Shown one piece after another: positions 15,810 through 54,266 of a stretch of 64,000 nucleotides of DNA. The notes beneath the pieces are model-generated. The model was not told the DNA's origin, did not search any database, and saw only the letters and a program-made list of their open reading frames with translations. This DNA comes from Allobosea sp. OK403 (lineage in GTDB: Bacteria > Pseudomonadota > Alphaproteobacteria > Rhizobiales > Beijerinckiaceae): the NCBI RefSeq assembly GCF_900113835.1, contig NZ_FOQV01000006.1, forward strand, positions 124,001 to 188,000. Reading direction: 5' to 3'. A program made the translations under genes and the position numbers. How positions within the stretch are numbered: position 1 is the first letter of the stretch; every line of letters starts with the position of its first letter.

Positions 15810-15842
15810 TATTGAAGCTGCGTTGCAGGAAGAGGCTTGCCG

Positions 15843-16100
15843 ATGAATATCTCCGTCAGCGAGGCCAAAGGGCAACTGACCGACCTCGTCCGCCGCGCGG
15901 AGGCCGGCGAGGAGGTGGTTCTGACCCGCCATGGTCAGGCGGCGGTTCGGTTGGTTCCTGTGAAGCCAGTTGTTGACAGCGCGGCGCGACGGCGGGTCAT
16001 CGAGACGGCCCAGGAGATGGCGCGCGGCAAGATATTGCCTGGGCCGGACGCCGCCCGAAGCCAGGACTTCCTCTATGACGAGGACGGCTTGCCGAAGTGA
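15843..16100 (+). CDS. Phd/YefM-family antitoxin
   Basis: An 85-residue protein with the Phd fold signature MNISVSEAKGQLTDLVRRAE followed by EEVVLTRHGQAAVRLVP. The N-terminal half binds the operator and the C-terminal tail (DAARSQDFLYDEDGLPK) is expected to wrap the toxin. ATG at 15843 follows AGGAAGAGG; an in-frame TTG at 15837 would add two residues. Its TGA overlaps the GTG start of the downstream PIN toxin, the usual coupling in such pairs. Confidence 0.88.
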   Translation: MNISVSEAKGQLTDLVRRAEAGEEVVLTRHGQAAVRLVPVKPVVDSAARRRVIETAQEMARGKILPGPDAARSQDFLYDEDGLPK

Positions 16101-16486
16101 TCGCGGTCGACACCTCCACGCTGATGGCGATCCTTCTCGACGAACCTCGAGCGGGCGACTGCATGGCGGCCTTGGAGCACGCGGGCGAGGTCGTGATCTC
16201 GGCTGGAACATTGACCGAAGCGCTGATCGTCGCGAGCAAGCGAGGGCTTGGTGATGCGATGGCCTATTTGGTCGATCGCTTCGGCTTTACCGTCGTCGAT
16301 GTGACGCTGGCGGAAGCACGACGCGCGGCTGCGGCGCATGAGATATGGGGCAGGGGCGTCCACCCGGCCGGGCTGAATTTCGGCGACTGTTTCGCCTATG
16401 CCGTCGCCAGACAGCACGATTGCCCGCTGCTCTTCGTCGGCGATGATTTCGTCAAGACCGATATCAGATCTGCGCTCGCATCTTAG
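16097..16486 (+). CDS. vapC: VapC-like PIN-domain toxin ribonuclease
   Basis: A 129-residue PIN-domain RNase. The acidic metal-binding residues are present: Asp5 (IAVDTSTLMAIL), Glu41 (GTLTEALIV), Asp in LNFGDCFAYAVA and Asp in LLFVGDDFVKT. VapC toxins cut tRNA or rRNA. It starts at GTG 16097, overlapping the antitoxin stop. The partner is a Phd-type rather than an AbrB-type antitoxin, a common combination. Confidence 0.88.
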   Translation: MIAVDTSTLMAILLDEPRAGDCMAALEHAGEVVISAGTLTEALIVASKRGLGDAMAYLVDRFGFTVVDVTLAEARRAAAAHEIWGRGVHPAGLNFGDCFAYAVARQHDCPLLFVGDDFVKTDIRSALAS

Positions 16487-17832: not shown

Positions 17833-20049
17833 TCAAGCCGCTGCAAGGCGGGCGGCAAAAGGCGCGTCCTGCGCCAGGAGCCGATCGATCTCATCCGCCG
17901 AGACGGCTTTCGAGAACAGGAAACCCTGCAATTCGTGGCAGCCGATCGCCTGCAGGAAGCGGTGCTGCTCAACCGTCTCGACACCCTCGGCGCAGACGCG
18001 CAGGCCGAGCGCGCGACCCAGATGAGCAATCGAGTGGACCAGGATCGCCGATTCTCCTGTCGTCTCCATGTATTCCAGGAAGGAGCGATCGATCTTGATC
18101 TTGTCGAAGGCGAAGCGGCGCAGATAGATCAGGCTCGAATAACCGGTGCCGAAATCGTCCAGCGCGAGGCCGACGCCGTGGCTGCGCAGATCCATCATCG
18201 CGGCCTCCGCCGCATCGGCATCCTCGACGACGACGCCCTCGGTCAATTCCAGTTCGAGACGCGCCGGGTCGAAGCCGGTCTCCTCAAGGATGGCGATGAC
18301 GTTGGCGACGAAGTCCTTGTGGCGGAACTGGATCGGCGAGACGTTGACCGCGAGCTTGACGCCCTCCCAGCGCAGGGCTTCCGTGCAGGCGCGCCGCAGC
18401 ACCCAGTCGCTCAGGGGCACGATCAGGCCGCGCTCCTCGGCGATACCGACGAATTCGGAGGGCGGCACCAGGCCGTGCTCCGGATGCGGCCAGCGCACCA
18501 GGGCCTCGACACCGATGATCGACAAGCCGTCGATCGAGACCTGCGGCTGGTAGTGCAGCACAAGCTGGTCGTCGATGATCGCCTTGCGCAGATCCTCCTC
18601 GACCATGCGCTTGAGCTGCAGTGAGCGGTTCATGTGCTCTTCGAAGAAGGAATAGCGGTTCCGGCCTTCGTTCTTGGATTGGTAGAGCGCGGTGTCGGCG
18701 AGCCGGAGCAGCAAGCCTCGGTCGCTGCCGTCCTGCGGGGCGAGCGCGATGCCGATCGAGCAGCCGATCGAGGTTTCCACTCCGAAGATGGTGAAAGGCT
18801 TGGTCAGGGCCTCAAGGATGCGTTCGCCAAGGGCGGCGCAGCCGGCCGGATCATGGATATTGGTCTGGATGATGCCGAATTCGTCGCCGCCAAGCCGTGC
18901 CACAGTGTCGCCCAGCCGCATGATGCCCAGGAGCCTGTCGGCGACCTGGCGGATCAGCTCGTCGCCGGCGGTGTGGCCATAGGTGTCGTTGACGGCCTTG
19001 AAGCGGTCGAGGTCGAGCAGCATGACCGCCAGGCTGGCGCCCGAGCGGCTGAGCTGCGCCAGTTCCTGATCGAGCCTGAGGTCGAAGGTCCGCCGGTTCG
19101 GCAGCAGCGAGAGCTCGTCCTGTCCCGCGAGGCGCTGGATCTGGCGTTCCCTGAGCGCGACCTGGCTCGCGGCGCCGCGCAACCTCTGGATGACATAGGC
19201 GAAGATCGCCGCGAAGAGCAGGCCAACCGCGACGAAGCCCCAGAAAAACTGGCGCAGCATGGCGTCGCCCGGGCGTTCGGGCGTCCAGGTCAGCCAGGCC
19301 TTGACGGCGCCGTCGGGCGCCAGAATCTGGCGGCGCGACACCGAATCCTCAGGCATCCGCCCGGTCAGGCGGACATCGGCGACACGGTAGCGATCGCTGA
19401 TGTCGTGCAGCACCGCGCTGGTCAATCGCCGATAGCCGACGAGCTTCAGACTGCCGGGCCAGCGGGGGACCGCCGGCGTGGCCGCGGCCGCGAGATCGGC
19501 GACCAGGACGGCGATGGCCTCTTGGCCGTCATGAATGATGAAGCTGACCGTCGGCTCGGCCATGGTCGTCGCGGGCGCCGTCGAGGCGGCTGAGCCTCCG
19601 GGAATGCGCTGGCTGAAATGCTTCAACCCGTTATAGCCGGTCTGGCCGGCCTGCACGCCGGATTCGACACCGGCGAGAACCCGGCCAGAGCCGGTCACGA
19701 TATAAGCGCCGTCGAATTCGAGGAAGCGCGTGCTGAGGCGCGTGAAAGCGGATTGGAGCGCCGAGAGCGGATCATCGCTCGCGGAGAGGGCGGTCTGCAA
19801 TTCCCCGCTCGCCGCGAGGCTGTCGAGCCGCAAACGGCGCAGCTTGAGCTGGCTGTCGATCGCCGCCTCGATGCGGTCGCGCTGGCGTATCGCCTCGAGC
19901 TTATTGGCGTCGCTGGTGATCGCGAGCACGACGGCGGCCAGGGCGGACACGACCAGCAGGAATGCACAGCCGAGCGTCGCCACGGTGCTCTTGAGCATCC
20001 GCGCCGACGAGTCCGCGTTGGTCATCTTCGCGACGGCAGGCGCGCGCAT
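17833..20049 (-). CDS. Membrane-bound GGDEF-EAL protein (cyclic di-GMP turnover)
   Basis: A 738-residue signalling protein. Transmembrane helix 1 is near residues 19-43, a periplasmic sensor about 44-262, helix 2 near 264-288. GGDEF domain: intact GGDEF at residues 387-391 with RLGGDEFGII. EAL domain: EALVRWPHPEHGLVPP at 515, then NVSPIQF, ELTEGVV, DDFGTGYSSL and KIDRSF, the catalytic set of an active phosphodiesterase. Both activities therefore look possible. The periplasmic part resembles double-Cache/CHASE-type sensors only loosely. It is a single-gene unit; the start could also be the Met at residue 9. Confidence 0.92.
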   Translation of the reverse strand: MRAPAVAKMTNADSSARMLKSTVATLGCAFLLVVSALAAVVLAITSDANKLEAIRQRDRIEAAIDSQLKLRRLRLDSLAASGELQTALSASDDPLSALQSAFTRLSTRFLEFDGAYIVTGSGRVLAGVESGVQAGQTGYNGLKHFSQRIPGGSAASTAPATTMAEPTVSFIIHDGQEAIAVLVADLAAAATPAVPRWPGSLKLVGYRRLTSAVLHDISDRYRVADVRLTGRMPEDSVSRRQILAPDGAVKAWLTWTPERPGDAMLRQFFWGFVAVGLLFAAIFAYVIQRLRGAASQVALRERQIQRLAGQDELSLLPNRRTFDLRLDQELAQLSRSGASLAVMLLDLDRFKAVNDTYGHTAGDELIRQVADRLLGIMRLGDTVARLGGDEFGIIQTNIHDPAGCAALGERILEALTKPFTIFGVETSIGCSIGIALAPQDGSDRGLLLRLADTALYQSKNEGRNRYSFFEEHMNRSLQLKRMVEEDLRKAIIDDQLVLHYQPQVSIDGLSIIGVEALVRWPHPEHGLVPPSEFVGIAEERGLIVPLSDWVLRRACTEALRWEGVKLAVNVSPIQFRHKDFVANVIAILEETGFDPARLELELTEGVVVEDADAAEAAMMDLRSHGVGLALDDFGTGYSSLIYLRRFAFDKIKIDRSFLEYMETTGESAILVHSIAHLGRALGLRVCAEGVETVEQHRFLQAIGCHELQGFLFSKAVSADEIDRLLAQDAPFAARLAAA

Positions 20050-20136: not shown

Positions 20137-20886
20137 TCAACCGGAGGGTGGTCCATAGGGCGGGCGCGGTATCGCGGTGTGGGCTGCGCGCAACGCCGCC
20201 GACCAGCGTTCGCGCAGGTCGTGGAAATAGGGCTCGCCGGCTTCGATCCGGCGGTTGAGCTCTGGCTCGGCGGCGTCGCGACGCAGCACGATCAGGTCGA
20301 TCGGCAGGCCGACGCCGAGATTGGAGCGCATCGTCGAATCCATCGAGATCAGACCGACCTTGAGCGCGTCGTAGAGATGCGTCTTGTAGGTCACGGCGCG
20401 GTCGAGGATCGGCTTGCCGTATTTGTGCTCGCCGATCTGGAGGAAGGGCGCGTCCATCCCGCATTCGATGAAGTTGCCGGCGCCATAGACCATGAAGAGC
20501 CGCATCGGCTGGCCCTTGATCTGGCCGCCAAACAGCATCGAGACGTCGAACTTTACGCCCGCTTCCTTCATGGCGTCGCCATCCATCTCCCTGACGGCGC
20601 GAATGGCGCGGCCGACGAGCTGGGCGGCGCGGAACATCGTCGTCGCGTTGAGCAGGGTGTCCATCTCGCCGGTTTCGGGATTGGCCAGCCCCTCATGCAG
20701 CAGGCTGACCACCGATTGGGTCACGGAGAGATTGCCCGCCGTCATCAAGCCGAAGGTGCGCTCGCTCGGCGTGGAAAAGACATGCAGCTTGCGGAAGGTC
20801 GAGACATCGTCGAGCCCGGCATTGGTACGGGTGTCGGCGATCATCACCAGCCCGTCCTGCACGAGGATTCCGGCGCAATAGGTCAC
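20137..20886 (-). CDS. Anbu proteasome-type peptidase
   Basis: A 249-residue HslV-related Ntn hydrolase of the Anbu type. The start is GTG at 20886 with AAGGA about 9 bases upstream. Removing the initiator Met exposes Thr1 in TYCAGILVQDGLVMIAD; Asp17 and Lys32 (DTRTNAG, TFRKLHVF) complete the expected site. Further family blocks are LMTAGNLSVTQSVVSLL and LFMVYGAGNFIE. The open frame continues upstream but that would bury Thr1, so the GTG is the functionally sensible start. It is last in an operon with ATP-grasp, alpha-E and transglutaminase-like genes, the standard Anbu neighbourhood. Confidence 0.92.
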   Translation of the reverse strand: MTYCAGILVQDGLVMIADTRTNAGLDDVSTFRKLHVFSTPSERTFGLMTAGNLSVTQSVVSLLHEGLANPETGEMDTLLNATTMFRAAQLVGRAIRAVREMDGDAMKEAGVKFDVSMLFGGQIKGQPMRLFMVYGAGNFIECGMDAPFLQIGEHKYGKPILDRAVTYKTHLYDALKVGLISMDSTMRSNLGVGLPIDLIVLRRDAAEPELNRRIEAGEPYFHDLRERWSAALRAAHTAIPRPPYGPPSG

Positions 20887-20935
20887 GAGGCGGGTCCTTG
20901 TCGCGGGATTGGCCGGGATGTGCCCGGCCGCTCCG

Positions 20936-21763
20936 TCATTGGTTGGCCTGGAAGCCGGCGGCCTGGCGCGCGCTGACGACCACGGAGAGGCGCTCACCGT
21001 CGCCGCCCTTGCGCGCCCCGCGCACCGGAGCGGCATCGGAATAGTCGAGGCCCGAGGCGATGCGCACATGGGTGTCGATCGGGCACAGGCCGTTGGCGCA
21101 ATCGAAGCCGATCCAGCCATAATCGTCGAGATGGACCTCGGCCCAGGCATGGGCGCCGCTGGCATGGGGCAAGGACTGGCTCTCGGCGACATAGCCGGAG
21201 ACGTAGCGCGCGGGCATGCCGAGATGGCGGGCGCAGGCCATGAAGACATGGGCGAGATCCTGCGCGATGCCCTCGCGCGCCGCGAAGGCGGCTGCGGCGC
21301 CGATCCCGATGCGGTCGGCAGGCTCCTGGCAGGTCATCTCCTCGTGCAGCGCGTCCATCAGGGCGTGCATCCTGGCAAGCGGTGTTCCTGCTTCGCGCGT
21401 CGTCTCCAGCGCGAAGCTGCGGAGCGCCTCATCTGGCGCGCTCAGCAGCGTGTCACGGCGAAAGACCTCGGGCGGAACGCGCTCGATGCCGCCGCGCACG
21501 ACGCCGGCGAGGTCTGTGGTCTCGATCAGGCCACTGACCTGGATCGCCAGCGTCGCGATCGGGCCATCGGCCGAGAAGGTGTGGATCAGGTTACCGTGGG
21601 GGTCCTGTCCGGCGCGCAAGCGGCCATCGACCGTGGGCTCGATGCGCCAGGACATGACATGCTGGCCATCATGGTCGCGCGGAGTCAGCCGCAGGATCTG
21701 CGTGATGTGCCGGGCAGGCTCGGCATAAGCATAAGCGATCGAGTGGGAAATCCGGATCCGCAT
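20936..21763 (-). CDS. Transglutaminase-like protein of the Anbu operon, catalytic Cys replaced by Ala
   Basis: A 275-residue protein with an N-terminal beta domain (MRIRISHSIAYAYAEPARHI) and a transglutaminase-like core. The His and Asp of the triad are seen in GAHAWAEVHLDDYGWIGFDCANG. Where the family has G-x-C-Q-D, this protein reads REGIAQDLAHVF; the codon is GCG (Ala), so the nucleophile is absent. Substrate binding or a scaffolding role is possible. ATG 21763 was chosen by family fit; the frame extends upstream to 21838. It lies 49 bp upstream of the Anbu gene. Confidence 0.9.
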   Translation of the reverse strand: MRIRISHSIAYAYAEPARHITQILRLTPRDHDGQHVMSWRIEPTVDGRLRAGQDPHGNLIHTFSADGPIATLAIQVSGLIETTDLAGVVRGGIERVPPEVFRRDTLLSAPDEALRSFALETTREAGTPLARMHALMDALHEEMTCQEPADRIGIGAAAAFAAREGIAQDLAHVFMACARHLGMPARYVSGYVAESQSLPHASGAHAWAEVHLDDYGWIGFDCANGLCPIDTHVRIASGLDYSDAAPVRGARKGGDGERLSVVVSARQAAGFQANQ

Positions 21764-21847
21764 GGCGTCGCTGGGTCTCGGGCGGTGGGGCGTGGACGGC
21801 CTCTCTTTAGCGGGCCAAGCGGCTGGAAGCGAGCCCAAGGCCCAATT

Positions 21848-22789
21848 TCATTGCAGATACTGCTCGATGATGGTGCCTCCAAGGCGATTATTCTCGGTGA
21901 TGAAGTCCGAGATGAACTCGTGCAGCCCGTGCTGGAAGATGTCGTCGATGCGGGTGTTGTTGAGGTTGGCGAGAGTCTTGCGCGCCTGGCGCTGGGCCGG
22001 GCCCTGACGGCCATAGGCGTCGCCGAGCGCGTCGAGGAAGCGCGAGATGTTCTCGTAGCAGCTCGCCAGCGAGCGCGGCATGCGTCGGTTCAGGATCAGG
22101 AGGTCTGCGATCAGCAGCGGCTTCACCGCCTCGCGATAGACCCAGTGATAGGCGGTCAGCGCCGAGACCTCGCGCAGCACGGTGGTCCACTGGAAATAGT
22201 CGAGCGAGCCGCCGACCTGCTCATTGGCCGGCAGCAGGACATGGTATTTTACGTCGAGGATGCGCGCCGTGTTGTCGGCGCGCTCGACATAGACGCCGAG
22301 CCTGGAGAACCAATAGCCGTCGTCGCGCAGCATGGTGCGGTAGGCCGAGCCGTCGAAGACCAGCGAGACGTTCTTGACCCATTCAAGGAAGCGGGCGAAC
22401 TCCTCGCGGTCCATGCGCTTCTTCTCGAAGCGCTGCAGTTCGAGCCAGGCGCCGTTCAGCGCGTCCCACATCTCCGAGGTCAGCGCGGTGCGCACCGCGC
22501 GCGCATTGGAGCGGGCGAGCGCCAGGCAGTTGCGGATCGAGGAATGATTGTCGGGGTTGAAGGTCAGGAAGTCGCAGACATTGCGCTCATTGGCCTCGCC
22601 ATAGGCCTTGGCGAAGGCCTCCTCGCAGCCGGCGGTCGAGACCGCGCTCTGCCATTCCGTGCCGGCGCCGCCATAGGCGTGGGGCAGGTTGGTCAATCGT
22701 GTCGTCGCATCGAGGATGCGGGCGAGATACTCGGCCCGCTCGACATAGCGGGAGACCCAGTAAAGGCTGTCAGCTGTACGCGAGAGCAT
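21848..22789 (-). CDS. Alpha-E domain protein of the Anbu operon
   Basis: A 313-residue, largely helical protein starting MLSRTADSLYWVSRYVERAE, the hallmark of the alpha-E family. Further conserved parts are LFDSNYPRS-like MPRSLASCYENISRFLDALG and a C-terminal YLQ. The family almost always sits next to a circularly permuted ATP-grasp gene and may form a complex with it. The frame extends upstream to 22870, overlapping the ATP-grasp stop by 8 bp, but the family start is at 22789. Confidence 0.9.
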   Translation of the reverse strand: MLSRTADSLYWVSRYVERAEYLARILDATTRLTNLPHAYGGAGTEWQSAVSTAGCEEAFAKAYGEANERNVCDFLTFNPDNHSSIRNCLALARSNARAVRTALTSEMWDALNGAWLELQRFEKKRMDREEFARFLEWVKNVSLVFDGSAYRTMLRDDGYWFSRLGVYVERADNTARILDVKYHVLLPANEQVGGSLDYFQWTTVLREVSALTAYHWVYREAVKPLLIADLLILNRRMPRSLASCYENISRFLDALGDAYGRQGPAQRQARKTLANLNNTRIDDIFQHGLHEFISDFITENNRLGGTIIEQYLQ

Positions 22790-22862
22790 GGTCAGTTCGG
22801 GCCTTTTCGTGGCGGGGCGCGGTGCGTCGGCGTTCCGTCCGGGATGAATGCCGCCATTGATG

Positions 22863-24278
22863 TTATGCATCGAGCACCCAGGTGTCTTTGGTTCCGCCGC
22901 CCTGGCTGGAATTGACGACGAGTGAGCCTTCCTTCAGCGCGACGCGGGTGAGGCCGCCGGGCACGCAGGAGATGCCGTTGGCGCCTGAGAGCACATAGGG
23001 GCGCAAATCGACATGGCGTGGGGCCACGCCCGAGGCCACGAAGGTCGGGCAGGTCGAGAGGGCCAGCGTGGGCTGGGCGATGAAGCCCTCAGGGCTCGCC
23101 TTCAGCTTCTTGCGGAAGGTCTCGATCTGCGCCTTGTTGGCGTGGGGGCCGACAAGCATGCCGTAGCCGCCGGAGCCGTTGACCTCCTTGACGACGAGCT
23201 TCTCGAGATTGTCGAGCACATAGGCGTTGGCCTCGGGCTCGCGGCAGCGCCAGGTCGGCACGTTCTTCAGGATCGGCTCCTCGCCGGTGAAGAACTTCAC
23301 GATCTCGGGCATGTAGCTGTAGACCGCCTTGTCGTCGGCGACGCCGGTGCCGACCGCGTTGGCCAGCGTGACATTGCCGGCCTTATAGGCGCCGATCAGC
23401 CCGGGCACGCCGAGCACGGAATCACTGCGGAAGACGAGCGGGTCGATGAAGTCGTCGTCGATGCGCCGGTAGATCACATCGACCCGCTTGGGCCCCTGCG
23501 TGGTGCGCATATAGACGACGTCGTCCTTGACCAGCAGGTCCGAGCCCTCGACCAGCTCAACGCCGAGCTTGTCGGCCAGGAAGGAGTGTTCGTAGAAGGC
23601 CGAATTGAACTGGCCGGGCGTCAGCAGGCAGATCGACGGGTCGCTTGGCGCGCTGCGCGGCGCGACCGAGCGCAGGGTCGCCAGCAACTGGTCGGGATAG
23701 TTGTCGACGGGTGCAACGCGATGCGTGGCGAAGAGCTCCGGGAAGAGCCTGAGCATCACCTCGCGGTTCTCCATCATGTAGGAGACGCCTGAGGGCGTGC
23801 GCGCATTGTCCTCCAGCACATAGAAGGTGTCGGCATCGACCCGGACCACGTCGATGCCGGCGATGTGGCAGTAGATGCCGTGCGGCACCTGGAAATCGAC
23901 CATTTCGAGCTGGTAGCAGGCATTGCCATAGACCAGGTCGGGCGGGATGATCCCGGCCTTGAGGCATTCCTTCGGCCCGTAGACATCGGCCAGGAACATG
24001 TTCAGCGCGGTCACGCGCTGGCGCAGGCCCGCTTCCAGCTTGGTCCATTCCGGCTTGGTCAAGACCCGGGGGATGATGTCGAAGGGGATCAGTCGCTCGG
24101 TCGACTCTTCGTCGCCATAAACGGCGAAGGTGATGCCGATGCGGCGGAAGAACAGTTCGGCCTGGCTGCGCCGCAGCGCCAACGTTTCCGGCGGCGCTTC
24201 TTTCAGCCAGCGGTCGAGCTCAGCATAGGCCGGCCGCAAATCGGAGCCGGAGCCGGTCATTTCATCGAACGCGACCAT
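22863..24278 (-). CDS. Circularly permuted type 2 ATP-grasp protein
   Basis: A 471-residue protein of the COG2308 family. Blocks seen: RRIGITFAVYGDEESTERLIPFDIIPR compressed near the N terminus, NMFLADVYGPKECLKAG, DTFYVLEDNARTPSGVSYM, KDDVVYMRTTQGPKRVDVIYRR, GNVTLANAVGTGVADDK and the ATP-grasp loop NGSGGYGMLVG. ATP-grasp enzymes make amide or peptide bonds, and this family has been proposed to ligate a peptide-like tag or product. It is first of the four-gene Anbu operon. ATG 24278 (MVAFDEMTG) has GGGGAAAA upstream; alternatives are 24296 and 24320. Confidence 0.9.
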   Translation of the reverse strand: MVAFDEMTGSGSDLRPAYAELDRWLKEAPPETLALRRSQAELFFRRIGITFAVYGDEESTERLIPFDIIPRVLTKPEWTKLEAGLRQRVTALNMFLADVYGPKECLKAGIIPPDLVYGNACYQLEMVDFQVPHGIYCHIAGIDVVRVDADTFYVLEDNARTPSGVSYMMENREVMLRLFPELFATHRVAPVDNYPDQLLATLRSVAPRSAPSDPSICLLTPGQFNSAFYEHSFLADKLGVELVEGSDLLVKDDVVYMRTTQGPKRVDVIYRRIDDDFIDPLVFRSDSVLGVPGLIGAYKAGNVTLANAVGTGVADDKAVYSYMPEIVKFFTGEEPILKNVPTWRCREPEANAYVLDNLEKLVVKEVNGSGGYGMLVGPHANKAQIETFRKKLKASPEGFIAQPTLALSTCPTFVASGVAPRHVDLRPYVLSGANGISCVPGGLTRVALKEGSLVVNSSQGGGTKDTWVLDA

Positions 24279-24750
24279 CGTAGGTGTTTTCCCCATTTCA
24301 GGCAGCCTATGCCTATTCACGATCGTTCGGGAAGGGGGCGCATGGTCAGGTCTGCGTCGGCGTCTGCCTAATCCTTGAGCAATTTCGGCGTTGATGTGGC
24401 CGGTGCGCTTGTCGAGTCGTCAAAAGGGATGAGGCGCGTCGCACCAAGTTGGGCCGCAGCAGGTCTTCGAGAGAATCGCCCGCTGCGGTACGGCCTGCAT
24501 CAGGGCTGATCCGCCTGATTGCTTTCGAGCCACTGCTTCAGAGCGACGGCGTTGTTTCGAGGTCTGTCGGGTTTTGATCTTGCATCGGCTTGTCCCGAAA
24601 ACCGGTTCCCACTTTTCGGGCCGATGCGAGAGCCGGATGATTTCAGATGGGGTCACAAAGTGATCCCATCTGAAATCTGAATCCGTCTCTCACCAAAAGT
24701 GAGAGCAGTATCAATGCGAAAAACCGGTTCCCACTTTTTCGCATCCTGCT
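24279..24750. other. Gene-free 472-bp region rich in inverted repeats
   Basis: No gene can be supported. It holds the promoter side of the Anbu operon and the downstream side of the DapA-like gene. At 24639-24677 a long hairpin has arms GATTTCAGATGGG / CCCATCTGAAATC flanking TCAC-aaa-GTGA; at 24577-24755 are two units of the dispersed repeat family. A possible 78-codon minus frame at 24420-24656 is made largely of repeat sequence and is not credible. Confidence 0.7.
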
Positions 24751-24755
24751 CTAGC
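24577..24755. repeat. Dispersed palindromic repeat, copy B (two units plus hairpin)
   Basis: Unit 1 (24586-24630): CATCGGC ... CCGAAAACCGGTTCCCACTT ... GCCGATG. Unit 2 (24700-24753): AGAGCAGTATC ... AAAAACCGGTTCCCACTTTT ... GATCCTGCTCT-type ends. A 39-bp hairpin lies between them. The unit shared with copy A is CCGGTTYCCACTTTTTCGC. Confidence 0.75.
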
Positions 24756-25668
24756 CGAGAAGCCCGGTCTGCTTGAGAATCGCTTTGATGGCCGCGGCTT
24801 CCTCGGCGTTGAGGGAGCGTTGCGGCCGGGCCATCGTGTTGGTGTCGATGACGCCGAGAAGTTGCATCGCCGTCTTGAATGCGCCGACGCCGGCCGAGCC
24901 GGCGCTGGTGCGGCCGAGCGAGATCCAGACCATCTCGAACAGGCGGCAGAGCCGTTCCTGCTCCAGGCGGGCCTCGTCCCATTTGCCCGCCTGGGTCAGC
25001 CGCCAAAGCTTGACGTAGCCCTTGGGGTCGACGTTGGCGAGGCCCGGTACCACACCGTGGGCGCCCATCAGCGCCGCATTGTCGACCACGATCTCGGACC
25101 CCGTCATCGCGAAGAAATCGGTGATGTCCGCCAGGTCCTGTTTGACGAAGCGAAAATTGCCGTCGTCCCCGCTGGAATCCTTCAGGCCTGCCACGGTGCC
25201 TTCACGGGCAAGCGTGACGGTTGTCTTGCGCTCAAGCTTGATGTGGACGCAGACGGGGATGTCATAGGCGATCACCGGGCGGTCGACCGCCTCACGCACA
25301 TAGCGGAAATGGTCGATGGTCTCGGCCTGGCTGGTGCGGGTGTAGAACGGGGCGGTCACGACCAGCGCGTCGGCGCCGGCGGATTGCGCGACCTTCGCAT
25401 GCTGGATGACGCGGTCGGTCGTTGGGTCGATCACGCCGGCGAAGATCGGCACGCGGCCATTGTTGATCCTGACGGCGTGTTCGATGATCTTCGCGCGCTC
25501 GTCATCACCGTGGAAGACGACTTCGCTGGTCGATCCCAGCACGAACAGGCCGTCGACGCCGCCCTCGAGCAGATGCTCGATCACGCGGGTGAAGGATGGG
25601 TAGTCGACCTTGAAATCCAGGGTCAGGGGGGTGACGACCGGGGGAACCACACCGTGAAAACGTGTCAT
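24751..25668 (-). CDS. DapA-family (dihydrodipicolinate synthase-like) aldolase/lyase 1
   Basis: A 305-residue class I aldolase-fold protein. It begins MTRFHGVVPPVVTPLT; the Schiff-base Lys is in AGLKDSSGDDGNFRF and the catalytic Tyr in VIAYDIPVCV. The substrate-binding GSTSEVVFH block departs from the GTTGE of true DapA, so a catabolic aldolase or dehydratase for a keto acid is more likely than lysine synthesis. It is the last gene of a minus-strand operon behind a peptide-type ABC transporter and a FadR-type regulator. Confidence 0.88.
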   Translation of the reverse strand: MTRFHGVVPPVVTPLTLDFKVDYPSFTRVIEHLLEGGVDGLFVLGSTSEVVFHGDDERAKIIEHAVRINNGRVPIFAGVIDPTTDRVIQHAKVAQSAGADALVVTAPFYTRTSQAETIDHFRYVREAVDRPVIAYDIPVCVHIKLERKTTVTLAREGTVAGLKDSSGDDGNFRFVKQDLADITDFFAMTGSEIVVDNAALMGAHGVVPGLANVDPKGYVKLWRLTQAGKWDEARLEQERLCRLFEMVWISLGRTSAGSAGVGAFKTAMQLLGVIDTNTMARPQRSLNAEEAAAIKAILKQTGLLG

Positions 25669-25685
25669 GGACTGAGGCTTTCTCT

Positions 25686-25717
25686 GCTTGGATTACTCAA
25701 GGCTTGGATTACTCAAG
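25686..25717. repeat. 16-bp perfect tandem duplication at permease 3' end
   Basis: GCTTGGATTACTCAAG at 25686-25701 and again at 25702-25717. The second copy contains the final codons and TAA of the permease gene ending at 25709. Confidence 0.85.
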
Positions 25718-26611
25718 CCCTGTGCGCGGATCGAAGGCGTCGCGGAGGCCGTCGCCGATGAAGTTGATGGCGAGCACGGTGGCCACGAGCGCGGCACCCG
25801 CCGGCATCCATTGCGAGGGGTGCAGCTCCAGCACCACGGTCGAGCGCGCTGCCCTGAGCATATTGCCCCAGCTCGCTTCGGGCGGAACGATGCCCATGCC
25901 GAGAAAGGACAGGCCGGCTTCGAGGAGGATCGCATTGGCGAACTGCACGGTGGCGTAGACCACGAGGATGTCGAGCGAGTTCGGCAAGGCATGGCGAAAG
26001 AGCAGGTGCCCGAGACCGGCGCCGAAGCCGCGGGAGGCGACGACGAAATCGCGTTCGCGAAGCTCCAGCAGGCGCGCCCGCACCATGCGCGACAGCACCG
26101 GCCAGGACAGGAGCGAGATCACGAAGATCGTCGGCAGGATGCCGGTGCCGGTGATCGAGGCGAGCACCAGCAGCAGGATGACCGGTGGCAGCGTCATGGC
26201 GAGATCGACGAAACGCATGATCGTTCCGTCGAGAACGCGCCCGCCGAAGGCTGCGATCGCGCCGACCAGAAAGCCGATGAGGAGCGAGATCGCCACCGAG
26301 ACCGATGCGATCAGCAGCGAGATCCGTCCGCCCTGTAGCAGGCGGGCCAAGGTGTCGCGGCCGACGCCATCGGTGCCGAGCCAATGGGCCATTGTGGGCC
26401 CGGAGTTCAGCGCCCGCAGATCGATGCTGTTGGGGGCATAGCGCCACCAGAACGGATAGGTCAGCACGGCGAGCAGCACGGGCACCAGGATGAGCAGTCC
26501 TGCGATCGCCGCGCCATTGCGAAAGAAGCGCATGAGCGCGCGCTGCAGCGGGCTGCGGCTCCGGCTTTGTGATGCAATCGCGCTTGCGGCCATGGGTGTG
26601 TCCACGCTCAT
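25709..26611 (-). CDS. Peptide/nickel-type ABC permease (DppC-like)
   Basis: A 300-residue inner-membrane permease with an N-terminal cytoplasmic tail, first helix near residues 35-56 and about five further helices. Characteristic: [20 protein letters not shown] and the EAA-type loop [22 protein letters not shown], ending [15 protein letters not shown]. Its ATG shares one base with the stop of the DppB-like gene upstream. No ATP-binding genes follow; the next gene is a DapA-family enzyme. Confidence 0.92.
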
Positions 26612-27570
26612 CAGCTCACCTGAATGCGCGGATCGACCACCGCATAGGCAAGGTCGGTCAGAAGATTGACCAGGATGACGCCGATGCCGACCAAGAGCGT
26701 CGCGCCCATGATCACGGGGTAGTCGCGGGTTTCGACCGCCTTGACCATCAGGAGCCCCATGCCGGGCCAGTCGAAGACGCTTTCGATGAAGATTGCGCCA
26801 CCGATGGCAATGCCGATGGTCGAACCGATCAGGGTGATGACGGGGAGGATGGCGTTGCGCAGCGCATGCCTGACGATCACCGCGAATTCGCCGACGCCCT
26901 TGGCTCGGGCCGTGCGCAGATAATCCTGGTTCAACACCTCGATCATCGAGGAGCGCATGTAGCGCATGAACAGCGCGGAATAGACGAGCGCCAGCAGCGA
27001 AGCGGGCAGGGTGAGGTGAGCCAGCAGATCGGTGAGCGAGAAGGGCGCGCCCGGCGTCAGCATTCCGCCCGAGGGAGCCCAGCGCAGCACCACCGCAAAA
27101 ACATAGAGGCCGAGCAGGGCCTTGAGGAAGGCCGGGGTCGAGATGACGAGGAAGGCGAGCACACCGAGGCCGACATCAATGGCGGAGTTGCGCTTGACCG
27201 CGCCGACGACGCCTGCCGCAATACCCAGCACGATCGCCATGGCCAGGCCGGTCAGCATCAGCAGCAGCGTCGGACCGGTGCGCTCGATCAGGAGCGGCAG
27301 CACGCGCACGCCAGCCCGGTCGATCGAATAACCGAGGTCGCCACTGAGCGCCGAGCGCAGCCAGGCGAGATACTGCACTGGCCAGGGCTGGTCGAGCCCG
27401 AGCCGTTGGCGCAGCGCATCCATCTCGACCTGGCTCAGCGGGGCCAGCGGATTAAGATAGGCGTCGATCGGGTCGCCCGGCGCCAGGCGCAGCAGCACGA
27501 AGACCATGATGCTGAGCGCAATCAGCATCATCAAGCCGGCGGTGAGCCGTTTCAGATAGAAGCCAAGCAT
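26611..27570 (-). CDS. Peptide/nickel-type ABC permease (DppB-like)
   Basis: A 319-residue permease starting [20 protein letters not shown] with six predicted helices. Family features: [37 protein letters not shown] and the EAA loop [23 protein letters not shown]. With the DppC-like partner and the binding protein it forms the membrane part of an importer for peptides, opines or similar solutes. Confidence 0.92.
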
Positions 27571-27595
27571 GGTTTACGCCGTCGTCGAGGGGAGC

Positions 27596-29173
27596 TCAGG
27601 GCGCGATCGACCATTTCTCCGGCGTGGCCGCGAACGGCCCGCCGCCCGGCGCGGGCGTCCAGACGAAGTCCTTGAGCTTGACCGAGGCGACGCCGTAGCG
27701 GTTGGCGACCCACATCGTGCCCCAGGGCAGCGTCTTGTTCATGACGGCGCAGACGTCCTGATATTTCGTCGTCGCCTTGGCCTGGTCGGTCTCGGCGACG
27801 GCGGCGTTCAGCGCGGCATTGAGCTCTGGGATCTTGATCTGCAGGAAGTTCTGGCCGACGGGCGGGATCTGGCTCTCGTTCAGCCCGAGATTGAGCGTTC
27901 CGGGATCGGGGCCATTCTGCAGGCCGGCATAGACCAGCGGGAAATCGGCCGGGTTCGGCGTCCTGGACATGACGATGCCGTTATAGCCCGCGGAATCCAA
28001 GGCGCGCGGCACGACGTTGATGCCGACCTGGGCGAGCATGGACTGGACCGCGGCCATGACGTTGGCAGTGAGCGGGTTGTTGTAATAGGTGATCCAGGAG
28101 ATCGGCTTGGTGCCGTTGATCTTGTCCCAGCCGGCCTCCATGAGAAGCTTCGCCGCCTTGGCCGGGTCATAGGCATATTCGTCGAGACCCTTCGGGATCA
28201 GGCTGCCCTCGACATAGCCGCAATCGGCCTTCTTGGCCGCGCCCTTGTAGAGGCTGTCGATGATCGTGTTGCGGTCGATCGCATGCATCACCGCCTGGCG
28301 GACGCGGATGTCGTTCCAGAGCGGTATCTGGTTGTTGAAGCCGATATAGTTGGCGACGTAGGAGGCGCCTTCGATAATGGTGTAGTCCTTGTTGCCCTTG
28401 AAGGTCGGGACGTCGTCGGACTCGATATAGGTGAACTGGATCTCGCCGGCCCGCAGCGCCGAGATCGCGGCGGCCGCATTGGCGAAGTAGCGATTGATCA
28501 GCCGGTCGACCTTGGGCTTGCCGCCGCGATAGGTTTCGTTGGCGGCGAGCTCGACGAAGCGGTCGGTCTCGTAGCGCACGAATTTGAACGGGCCGGTGCC
28601 GATCGGCTTGGTCGACCACATCGCATTCTTCGCCATGTCCTCCGGCGCGATCGCGGCGAGCGCATGCGCCGGCAGGATCATCATCTTGGTCAAGCTGACA
28701 ATCAGGGCGTTGTCGGGCCGCGACAGCTTGACGACGACGGTGCGCGGGTCCTTGGCCTCGACACTGTCGACCGCGGACAGCCGCGCTGACAGCAGGCTCG
28801 CGGTCTTCGGATTCTTGTTGAGCTCGATGGTGAACTTCACATCGGCCGCAGTGAACTTCTGGCCGTCATGCCAGCTCTCGTCCGCCAGCTTGAAAGTATA
28901 GCTCAGCTTATCCTGGCTGATCTCCCAGCTCGCAGCCAGTGCCGGCACGAGCTTGGTCAGGCCGGCGTCGTAAGTGACCAACGGTTCGAAATAGGTGCTC
29001 AGCCATGTGTAGCCGGCGGGCGCCGTCATCGGGTTGAAATTGCCCTGCAGGCCGCCGGGGCCGACGTCGAAGCCGCCGGTGATCGTCTTCATCTGGGCGA
29101 AAGCCGGCGTCATCATCGTGCCGGCCAGCAACACAGCGCCGAGCAGCGCCTTACGATAGGTCCTCATGGTCAT
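27596..29173 (-). CDS. Periplasmic solute-binding protein, family 5 (DppA/OppA-like)
   Basis: A 525-residue exported binding protein. Signal peptide residues 1-26 (MTMRTYRKALLGAVLLAGTM, cleavage after AFA). Mature part has the SBP_bac_5 pattern: LVPALAASWEISQDKLSYTF, KLADESWHDGQKFTAADV, IGTGPFKFVRYETDRFVEL and IRVQAVMHAIDRNTI-like RVRQAVMHAIDRNTII. ATG 29173 has GGGAGG 5 bases upstream. It supplies substrate to the DppBC-like permeases. Confidence 0.93.
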   Translation of the reverse strand: MTMRTYRKALLGAVLLAGTMMTPAFAQMKTITGGFDVGPGGLQGNFNPMTAPAGYTWLSTYFEPLVTYDAGLTKLVPALAASWEISQDKLSYTFKLADESWHDGQKFTAADVKFTIELNKNPKTASLLSARLSAVDSVEAKDPRTVVVKLSRPDNALIVSLTKMMILPAHALAAIAPEDMAKNAMWSTKPIGTGPFKFVRYETDRFVELAANETYRGGKPKVDRLINRYFANAAAAISALRAGEIQFTYIESDDVPTFKGNKDYTIIEGASYVANYIGFNNQIPLWNDIRVRQAVMHAIDRNTIIDSLYKGAAKKADCGYVEGSLIPKGLDEYAYDPAKAAKLLMEAGWDKINGTKPISWITYYNNPLTANVMAAVQSMLAQVGINVVPRALDSAGYNGIVMSRTPNPADFPLVYAGLQNGPDPGTLNLGLNESQIPPVGQNFLQIKIPELNAALNAAVAETDQAKATTKYQDVCAVMNKTLPWGTMWVANRYGVASVKLKDFVWTPAPGGGPFAATPEKWSIAP

Positions 29174-53486: not shown

Positions 53487-54266
53487 ATGAACTCCACCTC
53501 GACCAGTCCCATCGTCCGGGCAATCGACGTCTGCAAGCGCTTCGGCGATTTCGACGCTCTCAAGAGCGTCAATCTGGAGGTCGATGCCGGCGAAGTCGTC
53601 TGCATCATCGGCCCGTCCGGCTCAGGCAAGAGCACGCTTCTGCGCTGTATCAACCAGCTCGAACAGATCGATGGTGGCGCCATCTGGGTCAACGCGGAAC
53701 TGATCGGCTATCGCCGCGAAGGCACCAAACTCTACCATCTGACGGATGCCGAGATTGCCCGGCAGCGGCAATGCGTGGGCATGGTCTTCCAGCGCTTCAA
53801 CCTGTTCCCGCACTTCACGGCGCTGGCAAACGTCACGGAAGGCCCGGTCCAGGTCCTGGGCGAGCCGTTGAAGCAGGCCCAGGCGCGTGGCCGGGCGTTG
53901 CTCGCCCAGGTCGGGCTGGCCGACAAGGAAAACGCCTATCCATCCGAATTGTCGGGCGGGCAGCAGCAGCGTGTGGCGATCGCGCGCGGTCTCGCCATGC
54001 GGCCGGAGATCATGCTGTTCGACGAGCCGACCTCGGCTCTCGACCCGGAGCTCGTCGGCGACGTCCTTTCCGTGATGAAGGACCTCGCCACCAGCGGCAT
54101 GACCATGGTCGTGGTGACGCACGAACTCGGCTTCGCCCGCGAGGTCGCCGACCGCATCGTCTTCATGGATCAGGGCGAGATCATCGAGGTCGGCCTCGCC
54201 CGGGACCTGCTGTCCTCGCCACGTCAGAAGCGCACCCAGGATTTCATCTTGGCGGTGCGCGCCTGA
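53487..54266 (+). CDS. Polar amino acid ABC transporter ATP-binding protein
   Basis: A 259-residue ATPase of the GlnQ/HisP group. Walker [17 protein letters not shown]-loop [18 protein letters not shown], signature [16 protein letters not shown], Walker [17 protein letters not shown] and switch His [12 protein letters not shown] 53487 is favoured; a GTG at 53472 overlaps the permease stop and would add five residues. Confidence 0.94.

What the first reader, a model, noticed from the sequence alone, without database searches (positions are those of the whole stretch)
20137..24278. Complete Anbu peptidase operon with ATP-grasp, alpha-E and transglutaminase-like genes
Seen: four same-strand genes in tight order. 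The GTG start of the last gene places Thr directly after Met, with Asp17 and Lys32 in the right places for an active Ntn hydrolase. Established: Anbu peptidases are usually found with exactly these families, and a peptide-tagging or peptide-synthesis function has been proposed, but the substrate is unknown. This is the most coherent poorly understood system in the window.
Basis: partly seen in the sequence, partly recalled or inferred. Interest (0 to 1): 0.7.

Follow-up and report, generated by a model that had tools for sequence, protein, structure and literature searches.

The report
Anbu operon with a dead transglutaminase
This is a known four-gene bacterial set built around a proteasome relative, but one of its enzymes has lost the residue it needs to work, and in the genomes sampled that loss is seen only where a second, related gene cluster is present, a clue to what this little-understood system does.

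Summary
On the minus strand of 20137-24278 lie, in order of transcription, a circularly permuted ATP-grasp, alpha-E, a transglutaminase-like gene and Anbu, the order already in print. The nearest relatives are Bosea-group bacteria (Hyphomicrobiales). Anbu's Thr1, Asp17 and Lys32 are kept in 96 of 96 ORFs, with a start codon directly before Thr in all 96.

In the order 19 of 101 scored genomes lack this Cys, by 9 separate losses. The gene stays under purifying selection (Bosea-group median Ka/Ks 0.30, 45 pairs). All 19 carry a second locus (DUF2126 amidoligase-transglutaminase, fused ATP-grasp/alpha-E, live transglutaminase) against 36 of 82 Cys-bearing genomes (Fisher 1.7e-6; branch-length test 2e-4 to 1e-3). 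In turn, six residues invariant in operon ATP-grasps are kept by 0 of 60 fused copies.

So the two loci decay in opposite places. Best reading: one shared amide-ligation pathway, with ATP-grasp plus alpha-E as ligase, Anbu as hydrolase, and here a pseudo-transglutaminase as non-catalytic partner. Substrate unknown. New variant of a known kind.

The parts
22863..24278 (-). CP-ATP-grasp ligase (P0004, 471 aa), first gene; has E156, N158, R160, K317, K364, K464, which are invariant in operon copies of the order (106 of 106 or 107 of 107)
   Evidence: Pfam CP_ATPgrasp_2 3.2e-165; PDB 3n6x 9.5e-198; residues
21848..22870 (-). alpha-E protein (P0003, 340 aa), second gene; the Pfam domain begins at Met28 (about 22789), so the true start may be internal
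   Evidence: Pfam Alpha-E 1.7e-95; AF2 all-helical, pLDDT 81.8, pTM 0.83, residues 1-23 below 50; no PDB fold match at E <= 0.001
20936..21763 (-). transglutaminase-like pseudoenzyme (P0002, 275 aa), third gene; Ala167 at the catalytic Cys position, His205 and Asp221 kept
   Evidence: Pfam; residues; AF2 pLDDT 88.0, pTM 0.87, transglutaminase fold, best PDB match 3isr TM 0.76
21263..21265 (-). GCG (Ala167) at the catalytic-cysteine position; helix 167-180 of the model starts here
20137..20886 (-). Anbu (P0001), proteasome-like Ntn hydrolase, fourth gene; GTG start 20886-20884, Thr1 20883-20881, Asp17, Lys32
   Evidence: PDB 5loy, 5nyj, 5nyf, 5nyw, 5lox; residues and start codons

Best explanation
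This is an Anbu operon of the known kind. Shown: four genes, an ATP-grasp and an Anbu with the residues invariant in their kin, and a transglutaminase-like protein without its catalytic Cys. Inferred: the ATP-grasp, with alpha-E as its dedicated partner, activates a carboxylate with ATP and joins it to an amine, making a peptide or amide-tagged product; Anbu, a Thr-nucleophile hydrolase, cuts that product (turnover or maturation), so it needs the ligase but the ligase does not need it. The transglutaminase-like subunit here no longer does cysteine chemistry; it is kept as a folded, non-catalytic partner (substrate or protein binding). Where transglutaminase chemistry is needed, it comes from a second locus of the same genome: DUF2126 amidoligase-transglutaminase, fused pseudo-ATP-grasp/alpha-E, and a Cys-bearing transglutaminase. 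The two loci would thus share one pathway and have decayed in complementary places.
For: Gene identities. Dependence: all 95 Anbu genomes of 150 in the order also have alpha-E, while 14 of 109 alpha-E genomes lack Anbu (recount 98); in the phylum sample of 200, 68 of 69 Anbu genomes have alpha-E and 44 of 112 alpha-E genomes lack Anbu. Anbu detaches and the trio stays: of 95 loci, 78 G-E-T-N, 2 cut by contig ends, 15 with Anbu apart, of which only G087 splits the trio. T catalysis is dispensable: 19 of 101 genomes lack the Cys, 9 losses on a tree of 100 tips; 14 losses on a joint tree of 175 tips; three phylum genomes (G227, G270, G326) have G-E-N with no T gene between alpha-E and Anbu. Kept as protein: Cys-less T Ka/Ks median 0.30 in the Bosea group (45 pairs, max 0.49) and 0.29 in a Methylobacterium group (10 pairs), against 0.32 (Methylobacterium) and 0.20 (Bradyrhizobium) for Cys-bearing T, 45 pairs each. 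Complementarity: E156, N158, R160, K317, K364, K464 are kept by 0 of 60 fused ATP-grasps and by 106 of 106 or 107 of 107 operon copies; T genes beside fused copies are C-H-D in 52 of 52 found; Cys-less genomes 19 of 19 DUF2126+, Cys-bearing 36 of 82 (Fisher 1.7e-6); all 9 losses on DUF2126+ branches, which hold 39-46% of live branch length (p 2e-4 to 1e-3). Internal control: in the same sample the ATP-grasp and Anbu residues are never lost.
Against: No product, substrate or activity is shown here or in the passages seen. Yersinia operon proteins gave no specific co-precipitation with Anbu, and Anbu did not stimulate the ATP-grasp (PMC6376114, passages). Shared pathway is inferred from co-occurrence; simple redundancy of transglutaminase activity would give the same pattern. 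36 of 82 Cys-bearing genomes also have the second locus, so its presence permits but does not force the loss. With the fused ATP-grasp as marker the link is weaker: 17 of 19 (Fisher 2.4e-4), and in the second sample 22 of 23 against 18 of 27; the exception there (G171, Lichenibacterium ramalinae) also lacks Anbu, though it has the DUF2126-transglutaminase. The fused locus has its own predicted amidoligase (DUF2126), so it need not borrow the operon's ATP-grasp. One phylum genome (G282) has Anbu and no alpha-E. T is the fastest-evolving of the four genes in all four groups measured; in one genus (G021, G067, G103, G134) the active-site loop is rebuilt and His is gone too.
Confidence: 0.55

Rival explanations
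1. Standard tagging model: all four proteins are working enzymes; ATP-grasp and transglutaminase make or attach a peptide tag and Anbu removes tags or degrades tagged proteins.
For: Proposed in the literature (PMC5666114, PMC6376114, passages); 82 of 101 order genomes keep the catalytic Cys.
Against: The window's protein has Ala at the Cys; its nearest Cys is C177, ten residues on in the same helix, where the family consensus has Ala. Nine separate losses, and three G-E-N operons with no T gene between alpha-E and Anbu, though in G270 a transglutaminase-like ORF lies after Anbu.
Confidence: 0.1
2. Plain redundancy: the second locus supplies an interchangeable transglutaminase, the operon copy drifts, and the two loci otherwise act in separate pathways.
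For: Loss only on the DUF2126+ background in the order sample; T evolves fastest; the fused locus has its own predicted amidoligase.
Against: Cys-less T is under purifying selection like Cys-bearing T (0.30 and 0.29 against 0.32 and 0.20), keeps Asp in 19 of 19 and His in 14 of 19 and the predicted fold, so it is not simply drifting away. Redundancy would still imply a shared substrate class.
Confidence: 0.25
3. The association is a by-product of genome size or lineage: large genomes hold the second locus and also accumulate pseudoenzymes.
For: Cys-less genomes are slightly larger than Cys-bearing DUF2126-negative ones (medians 4.8 and 4.0 Mb, Mann-Whitney p 0.06).
Against: The association holds within size tertiles (19 observed, permutation p 2e-5) and sizes equal those of Cys-bearing DUF2126+ genomes (4.8 and 4.8 Mb); nine losses are spread over nine families; ATP-grasp and Anbu in the same sample do not lose residues.
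Confidence: 0.1

Closest known systems
Anbu operon as described in print (PMC6376114 on Yersinia bercovieri, PMC5666114 on Pseudomonas aeruginosa; passages seen)
   Same: Same four families in the order given there as conserved; Anbu Thr1/Asp17/Lys32; no AAA+ ATPase in the operon.
   Different: The window's transglutaminase-like protein has no catalytic Cys; the state of that Cys in those two species was not tested here.
Second locus of the same genome (DUF2126-transglutaminase, fused CP-ATP-grasp/alpha-E, transglutaminase), G000:C12, L148
   Same: CP-ATP-grasp, alpha-E and transglutaminase families.
   Different: No Anbu match there; ATP-grasp fused to alpha-E and without the six residues invariant in operon copies; its short transglutaminase keeps C-H-D; adds a DUF2126 predicted amidoligase.
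NtrC/sigma54-controlled cluster I35_5080-83 of Burkholderia cenocepacia (PMC5491218, passages)
   Same: DUF404/DUF407 (ATP-grasp), DUF403 (alpha-E) and transglutaminase-like genes in one cluster.
   Different: No Anbu named in the passages; has a large transglutaminase-like protein; no sigma54-like site was found upstream of the window's operon.
rloABC operon of Pseudomonas aeruginosa (PMC12239564, passages)
   Same: An ATP-grasp protein, a peptidase and an inactive transglutaminase in one operon: a precedent for a pseudo-transglutaminase beside a ligase-type protein and a protease.
   Different: Retropepsin-like aspartic protease instead of Anbu, an ATP-grasp related to RimK, transglutaminase domain fused to seven membrane helices.

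Membership tests
Anbu (proteasome-like Ntn hydrolase) | Sequence relation to solved Anbu over the full length | tested here: met
   phmmer 5.3e-83 to 7.5e-60, query from residue 2 to 239-244 of 249
Anbu (proteasome-like Ntn hydrolase) | Thr directly after the start Met, Asp17, Lys32 | tested here: met
   (96 of 96 including the window)
Anbu (proteasome-like Ntn hydrolase) | Split-ring or helical assembly through the C-terminal helix | not testable with these tools
   only sequence compared; no model of Anbu was made
Anbu (proteasome-like Ntn hydrolase) | Hydrolase activity | not testable with these tools
   no cleavage reported for Yersinia, Pseudomonas and Hyphomicrobium Anbu (passages)
Anbu four-gene operon | ATP-grasp, alpha-E, transglutaminase-like, Anbu in this order on one strand | tested here: met
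   78 of 95 other Anbu loci the same
Transglutaminase-like fold family (PF01841) | Fold and family profile | tested here: met
Catalytic transglutaminase / cysteine protease | Cys-His-Asp triad | tested here: not met
   Ala167-His205-Asp221
CP-ATP-grasp ligase | Family profile and the residues invariant in operon copies | tested here: met
CP-ATP-grasp ligase (fused paralogue P0005, not in the window) | The same invariant residues | tested here: not met
   0 of 60 fused copies keep E156, N158, R160, K317, K364, K464; their role as ATP/Mg ligands is recalled, not tested

The most novel reading that the evidence does not exclude
The Anbu operon and the DUF2126 locus are two halves of one machine with swapped pseudoenzymes: the operon supplies the live ATP-grasp and the hydrolase Anbu, the second locus supplies live transglutaminases and a second amidoligase, and each carries a dead copy of the other's enzyme (pseudo-transglutaminase here, pseudo-ATP-grasp there) as a structural or substrate-presenting subunit. 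Anbu would then be a hydrolase of an amide product made by both loci.
Probability: 0.3. Interest if true: 0.75.

Novelty: new variant of a known kind. Interest (0 to 1): 0.5.

Why it matters
Anbu has been placed near the root of the proteasome family, yet its substrate is unknown. If transglutaminase catalysis is dispensable in the operon whenever a second locus exists, that locus points to the missing pathway: it says which genes to delete together, which enzyme must be live (the ATP-grasp, whose residues were never lost in the sample), and which model (transglutaminase tagging by the operon itself) fails for this and many related species. It turns an open question into a two-locus genetic test.

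Tried and rejected
Nitrogen control: the Burkholderia cluster is NtrC/sigma54-controlled, so I looked for sigma54 sites. The short pattern gave one hit in the window, at 53888, with 1.06 expected by chance; the longer one with up to 2 mismatches gave 8 hits (11 expected), none in 24279-24750. Not supported for this operon.

A fold clue for alpha-E: AF2 gave a helical model (pLDDT 81.8), but Foldseek found nothing at E <= 0.001 in the PDB and phmmer gave no credible relative (best E 0.053). No function can be read from it.

A fifth conserved gene: not pursued. Gaps between T and Anbu are 10-708 bp, 70 of 78 under 200 bp; small ORFs in the larger gaps were not examined.

A single clean marker for the second locus: with the fused ATP-grasp as marker, G171 is an exception, G103 has the gene in pieces and G134 (78% complete) shows none; with DUF2126 all three fit. 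I report both, since I changed marker after seeing the exceptions.

Catalytic motif of the large DUF2126 transglutaminases: 53 of 62 ORFs showed a GxCRD motif in their first 420 residues; 9 did not and were not resolved, and I draw nothing from them.

Rows dropped before counts: 8 of the 109 alpha-E genomes have no scored operon T (G024, G030, G073, G084, G089, G119, G139, G149); the T-like gene L121 beside Anbu of G144 was left out as another subfamily; G078 has no operon ATP-grasp on its contig and is not on the tree. Of the 80 genome-contig loci 23 are Cys-less, 53 Cys-bearing and 4 not scored; to I gave 50 of the 80, all 23 Cys-less and 27 of the 53 Cys-bearing, picked by me across genera before seeing the result, not at random. 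The samples overlap (for example L242 and G351, L290 and G328 lie on contigs of equal length). One record labelled Bosea (Bosea sp. 117, L239, 66% identity in alpha-E) keeps the Cys.
Full report
What is there. The four genes are on the minus strand exactly at 20137-24278: CP-ATP-grasp (24278-22863), alpha-E (22870-21848), transglutaminase-like (21763-20936) and Anbu (20886-20137). Pfam names the first three. Anbu is below the Pfam Proteasome cut-off (21.3 against 22.4 bits), but it matches five distinct PDB sequences over nearly its full length at 5.3e-83 to 7.5e-60, three named Anbu and two Peptidase. Thr follows the GTG start; Asp17 and Lys32 are in place. In 96 of 96 Anbu ORFs, window included, these residues are kept and a start codon lies directly before Thr. 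Nine genome-contig loci have 85-93% identity in alpha-E; five are labelled Bosea, one Boseaceae, two Rhizobiales bacterium and one Methylobacterium MAG, so the window is most likely from Bosea or a near neighbour.

What is known. Passages of PMC5666114 and PMC6376114 describe this operon in this order, with a proposed peptide-synthesis or tagging role, no detected peptidase activity, phosphate release by the Yersinia ATP-grasp, and binding of epoxomicin and MG132 to Thr1 of Pseudomonas Anbu. The same passages report Anbu up in nitrogen-limited Pseudomonas putida, and a Burkholderia cluster with ATP-grasp, alpha-E and transglutaminase-like genes is NtrC/sigma54-controlled (PMC5491218, passages). 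The paper that first proposed the system (Iyer et al. 2009) is not held and I did not read it.

Which genes depend on which. In 150 genomes of the order, 95 have Anbu and 109 have alpha-E; all 95 are among the 109. In 200 genomes of the phylum, 69 have Anbu and 112 have alpha-E; 68 of the 69 have alpha-E, the exception being G282. Of 95 Anbu loci other than the window, 78 are G-E-T-N, 2 are cut by contig ends and 15 have Anbu apart; among those 15 only G087 breaks the trio. Three genomes (G227, G270, G326) have ATP-grasp, alpha-E and Anbu with no T gene between alpha-E and Anbu; in G270 a transglutaminase-like ORF lies after Anbu. So ATP-grasp plus alpha-E looks like the core, Anbu an add-on that needs it, and T the most dispensable part.

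The transglutaminase here is a pseudoenzyme. The window has GIAQDLAH where the family has GVCQDxxH: Ala167, with His205 and Asp221 kept; the alignment to 3isr puts this Ala against the Cys of GVCRDFAH. AF2 gives a transglutaminase fold (pLDDT 88.0; best match 3isr, TM 0.76) with a helix starting at residue 167. In the order 19 of 101 scored genomes lack the Cys (A, P, V, S or T in its place; in the four genomes of one genus the loop is rebuilt and His is gone too; in G058 His is Arg). Parsimony that allows only losses gives 9 events on a FastTree tree of 100 tips, and 14 on a joint tree of 175 tips with genome-contig loci. In that collection 23 of 80 loci are Cys-less, 53 keep the Cys and 4 could not be scored; the nine loci nearest the window are all Cys-less, with Ala (GCG, GCA) or Pro (CCG, CCT) codons. 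The gene is not simply decaying: Ka/Ks in the Bosea group has median 0.30 and maximum 0.49 over 45 pairs, and 0.29 in a Cys-less Methylobacterium group (10 pairs), against 0.32 for Cys-bearing Methylobacterium and 0.20 for Bradyrhizobium (45 pairs each); it is, however, the fastest of the four genes in all four groups.

The second locus. The same genome has, on contig C12, a DUF2126 amidoligase-transglutaminase, an 822-residue ATP-grasp fused to alpha-E, and a Cys-bearing transglutaminase. Fused copies occur in 60 of 150 order genomes by a cut of 396 bits that I set, with a 61st, G103, in pieces. None of 60 fused ORFs keeps E156, N158, R160, K317, K364 or K464; operon ATP-grasps keep them in 106 of 106 or 107 of 107. 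That some of these are the ATP and Mg ligands is recalled from glutathionylspermidine synthetase, not tested. T genes found beside fused copies are C-H-D in 52 of 52.

The association. With the fused ATP-grasp as marker: Cys-less 17 of 19, Cys-bearing 36 of 82 (Fisher 2.4e-4); of the other two, G103 has the fused gene in pieces on two contigs and G134 is a 78% complete genome. With DUF2126 as marker: 19 of 19 against 36 of 82 (Fisher 1.7e-6); all 9 losses fall on DUF2126+ branches, which hold 39-46% of the live branch length (binomial p 2e-4 to 1e-3). It holds within genome-size tertiles (permutation p 2e-5). In the second sample the fused gene is in 22 of 23 Cys-less and 18 of 27 Cys-bearing genomes. 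The exception, Lichenibacterium ramalinae, has no Anbu match and no fused gene but does have a DUF2126-transglutaminase. DUF2126 itself was not searched for in the other 22. In another order of the class, G347 is Cys-less, has a fused copy and has no Anbu match.

Mechanism. Shown: ATP-grasp and Anbu with their invariant residues, absent Cys in T, and the statistical link to the second locus. Inferred: ATP-grasp with alpha-E makes an amide or peptide; Anbu hydrolyses it; T is a non-catalytic partner here; transglutaminase chemistry, where needed, comes from the second locus. In the rloABC operon of Pseudomonas aeruginosa mutations in the inactive transglutaminase RloB and the ATP-grasp RloC rescue protease mutants (PMC12239564, passages), so an inactive transglutaminase in such a setting can matter. 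The link may reflect redundancy alone; even so the two loci would share a substrate class.

Novelty. In six paper searches I saw no title, listed abstract start or passage that reports Cys-less transglutaminases in Anbu operons or a dead ATP-grasp fused to alpha-E; the library lacks most subscription papers. I rate the operon itself as known, and the pseudoenzyme with the two-locus pattern as a new variant.

Noticed in passing
L334, L335, L336 (G227, G270, G326): ATP-grasp, alpha-E and Anbu adjacent with no transglutaminase gene between alpha-E and Anbu; in L335 a transglutaminase-like ORF follows Anbu.
   Followed up: partly
L337 (G282:C88): Anbu in a genome with no alpha-E match: the one exception among 69 Anbu genomes of the phylum sample.
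   Followed up: no
L274 / G171 (Lichenibacterium ramalinae): Operon trio with Cys-less transglutaminase but neither Anbu nor fused ATP-grasp found; DUF2126-transglutaminase present on another contig.
   Followed up: partly
L127 (G116:C1): A second Anbu gene, apart from any trio, in a genome that also has a full operon (L086).
   Followed up: no
L239 (Bosea sp. 117): A record labelled Bosea whose alpha-E is only 66% identical to the window's and whose transglutaminase keeps the Cys; the label may be wrong.
   Followed up: no
window 24751-29173, minus strand: Upstream on the same strand: DHDPS-family gene, an OppC-type ABC permease and a family 5 solute-binding protein by Pfam, with a further permease-like ORF (26611-27570) by eye; whether they bear on the operon is unknown.
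   Followed up: partly
window 17833-20049, minus strand: GGDEF-EAL protein directly downstream of Anbu on the same strand.
   Followed up: partly
window 15837-16486, plus strand: Pair of small ORFs that read like a Phd-type antitoxin and a PIN-domain toxin (by eye, no profile search).
   Followed up: no
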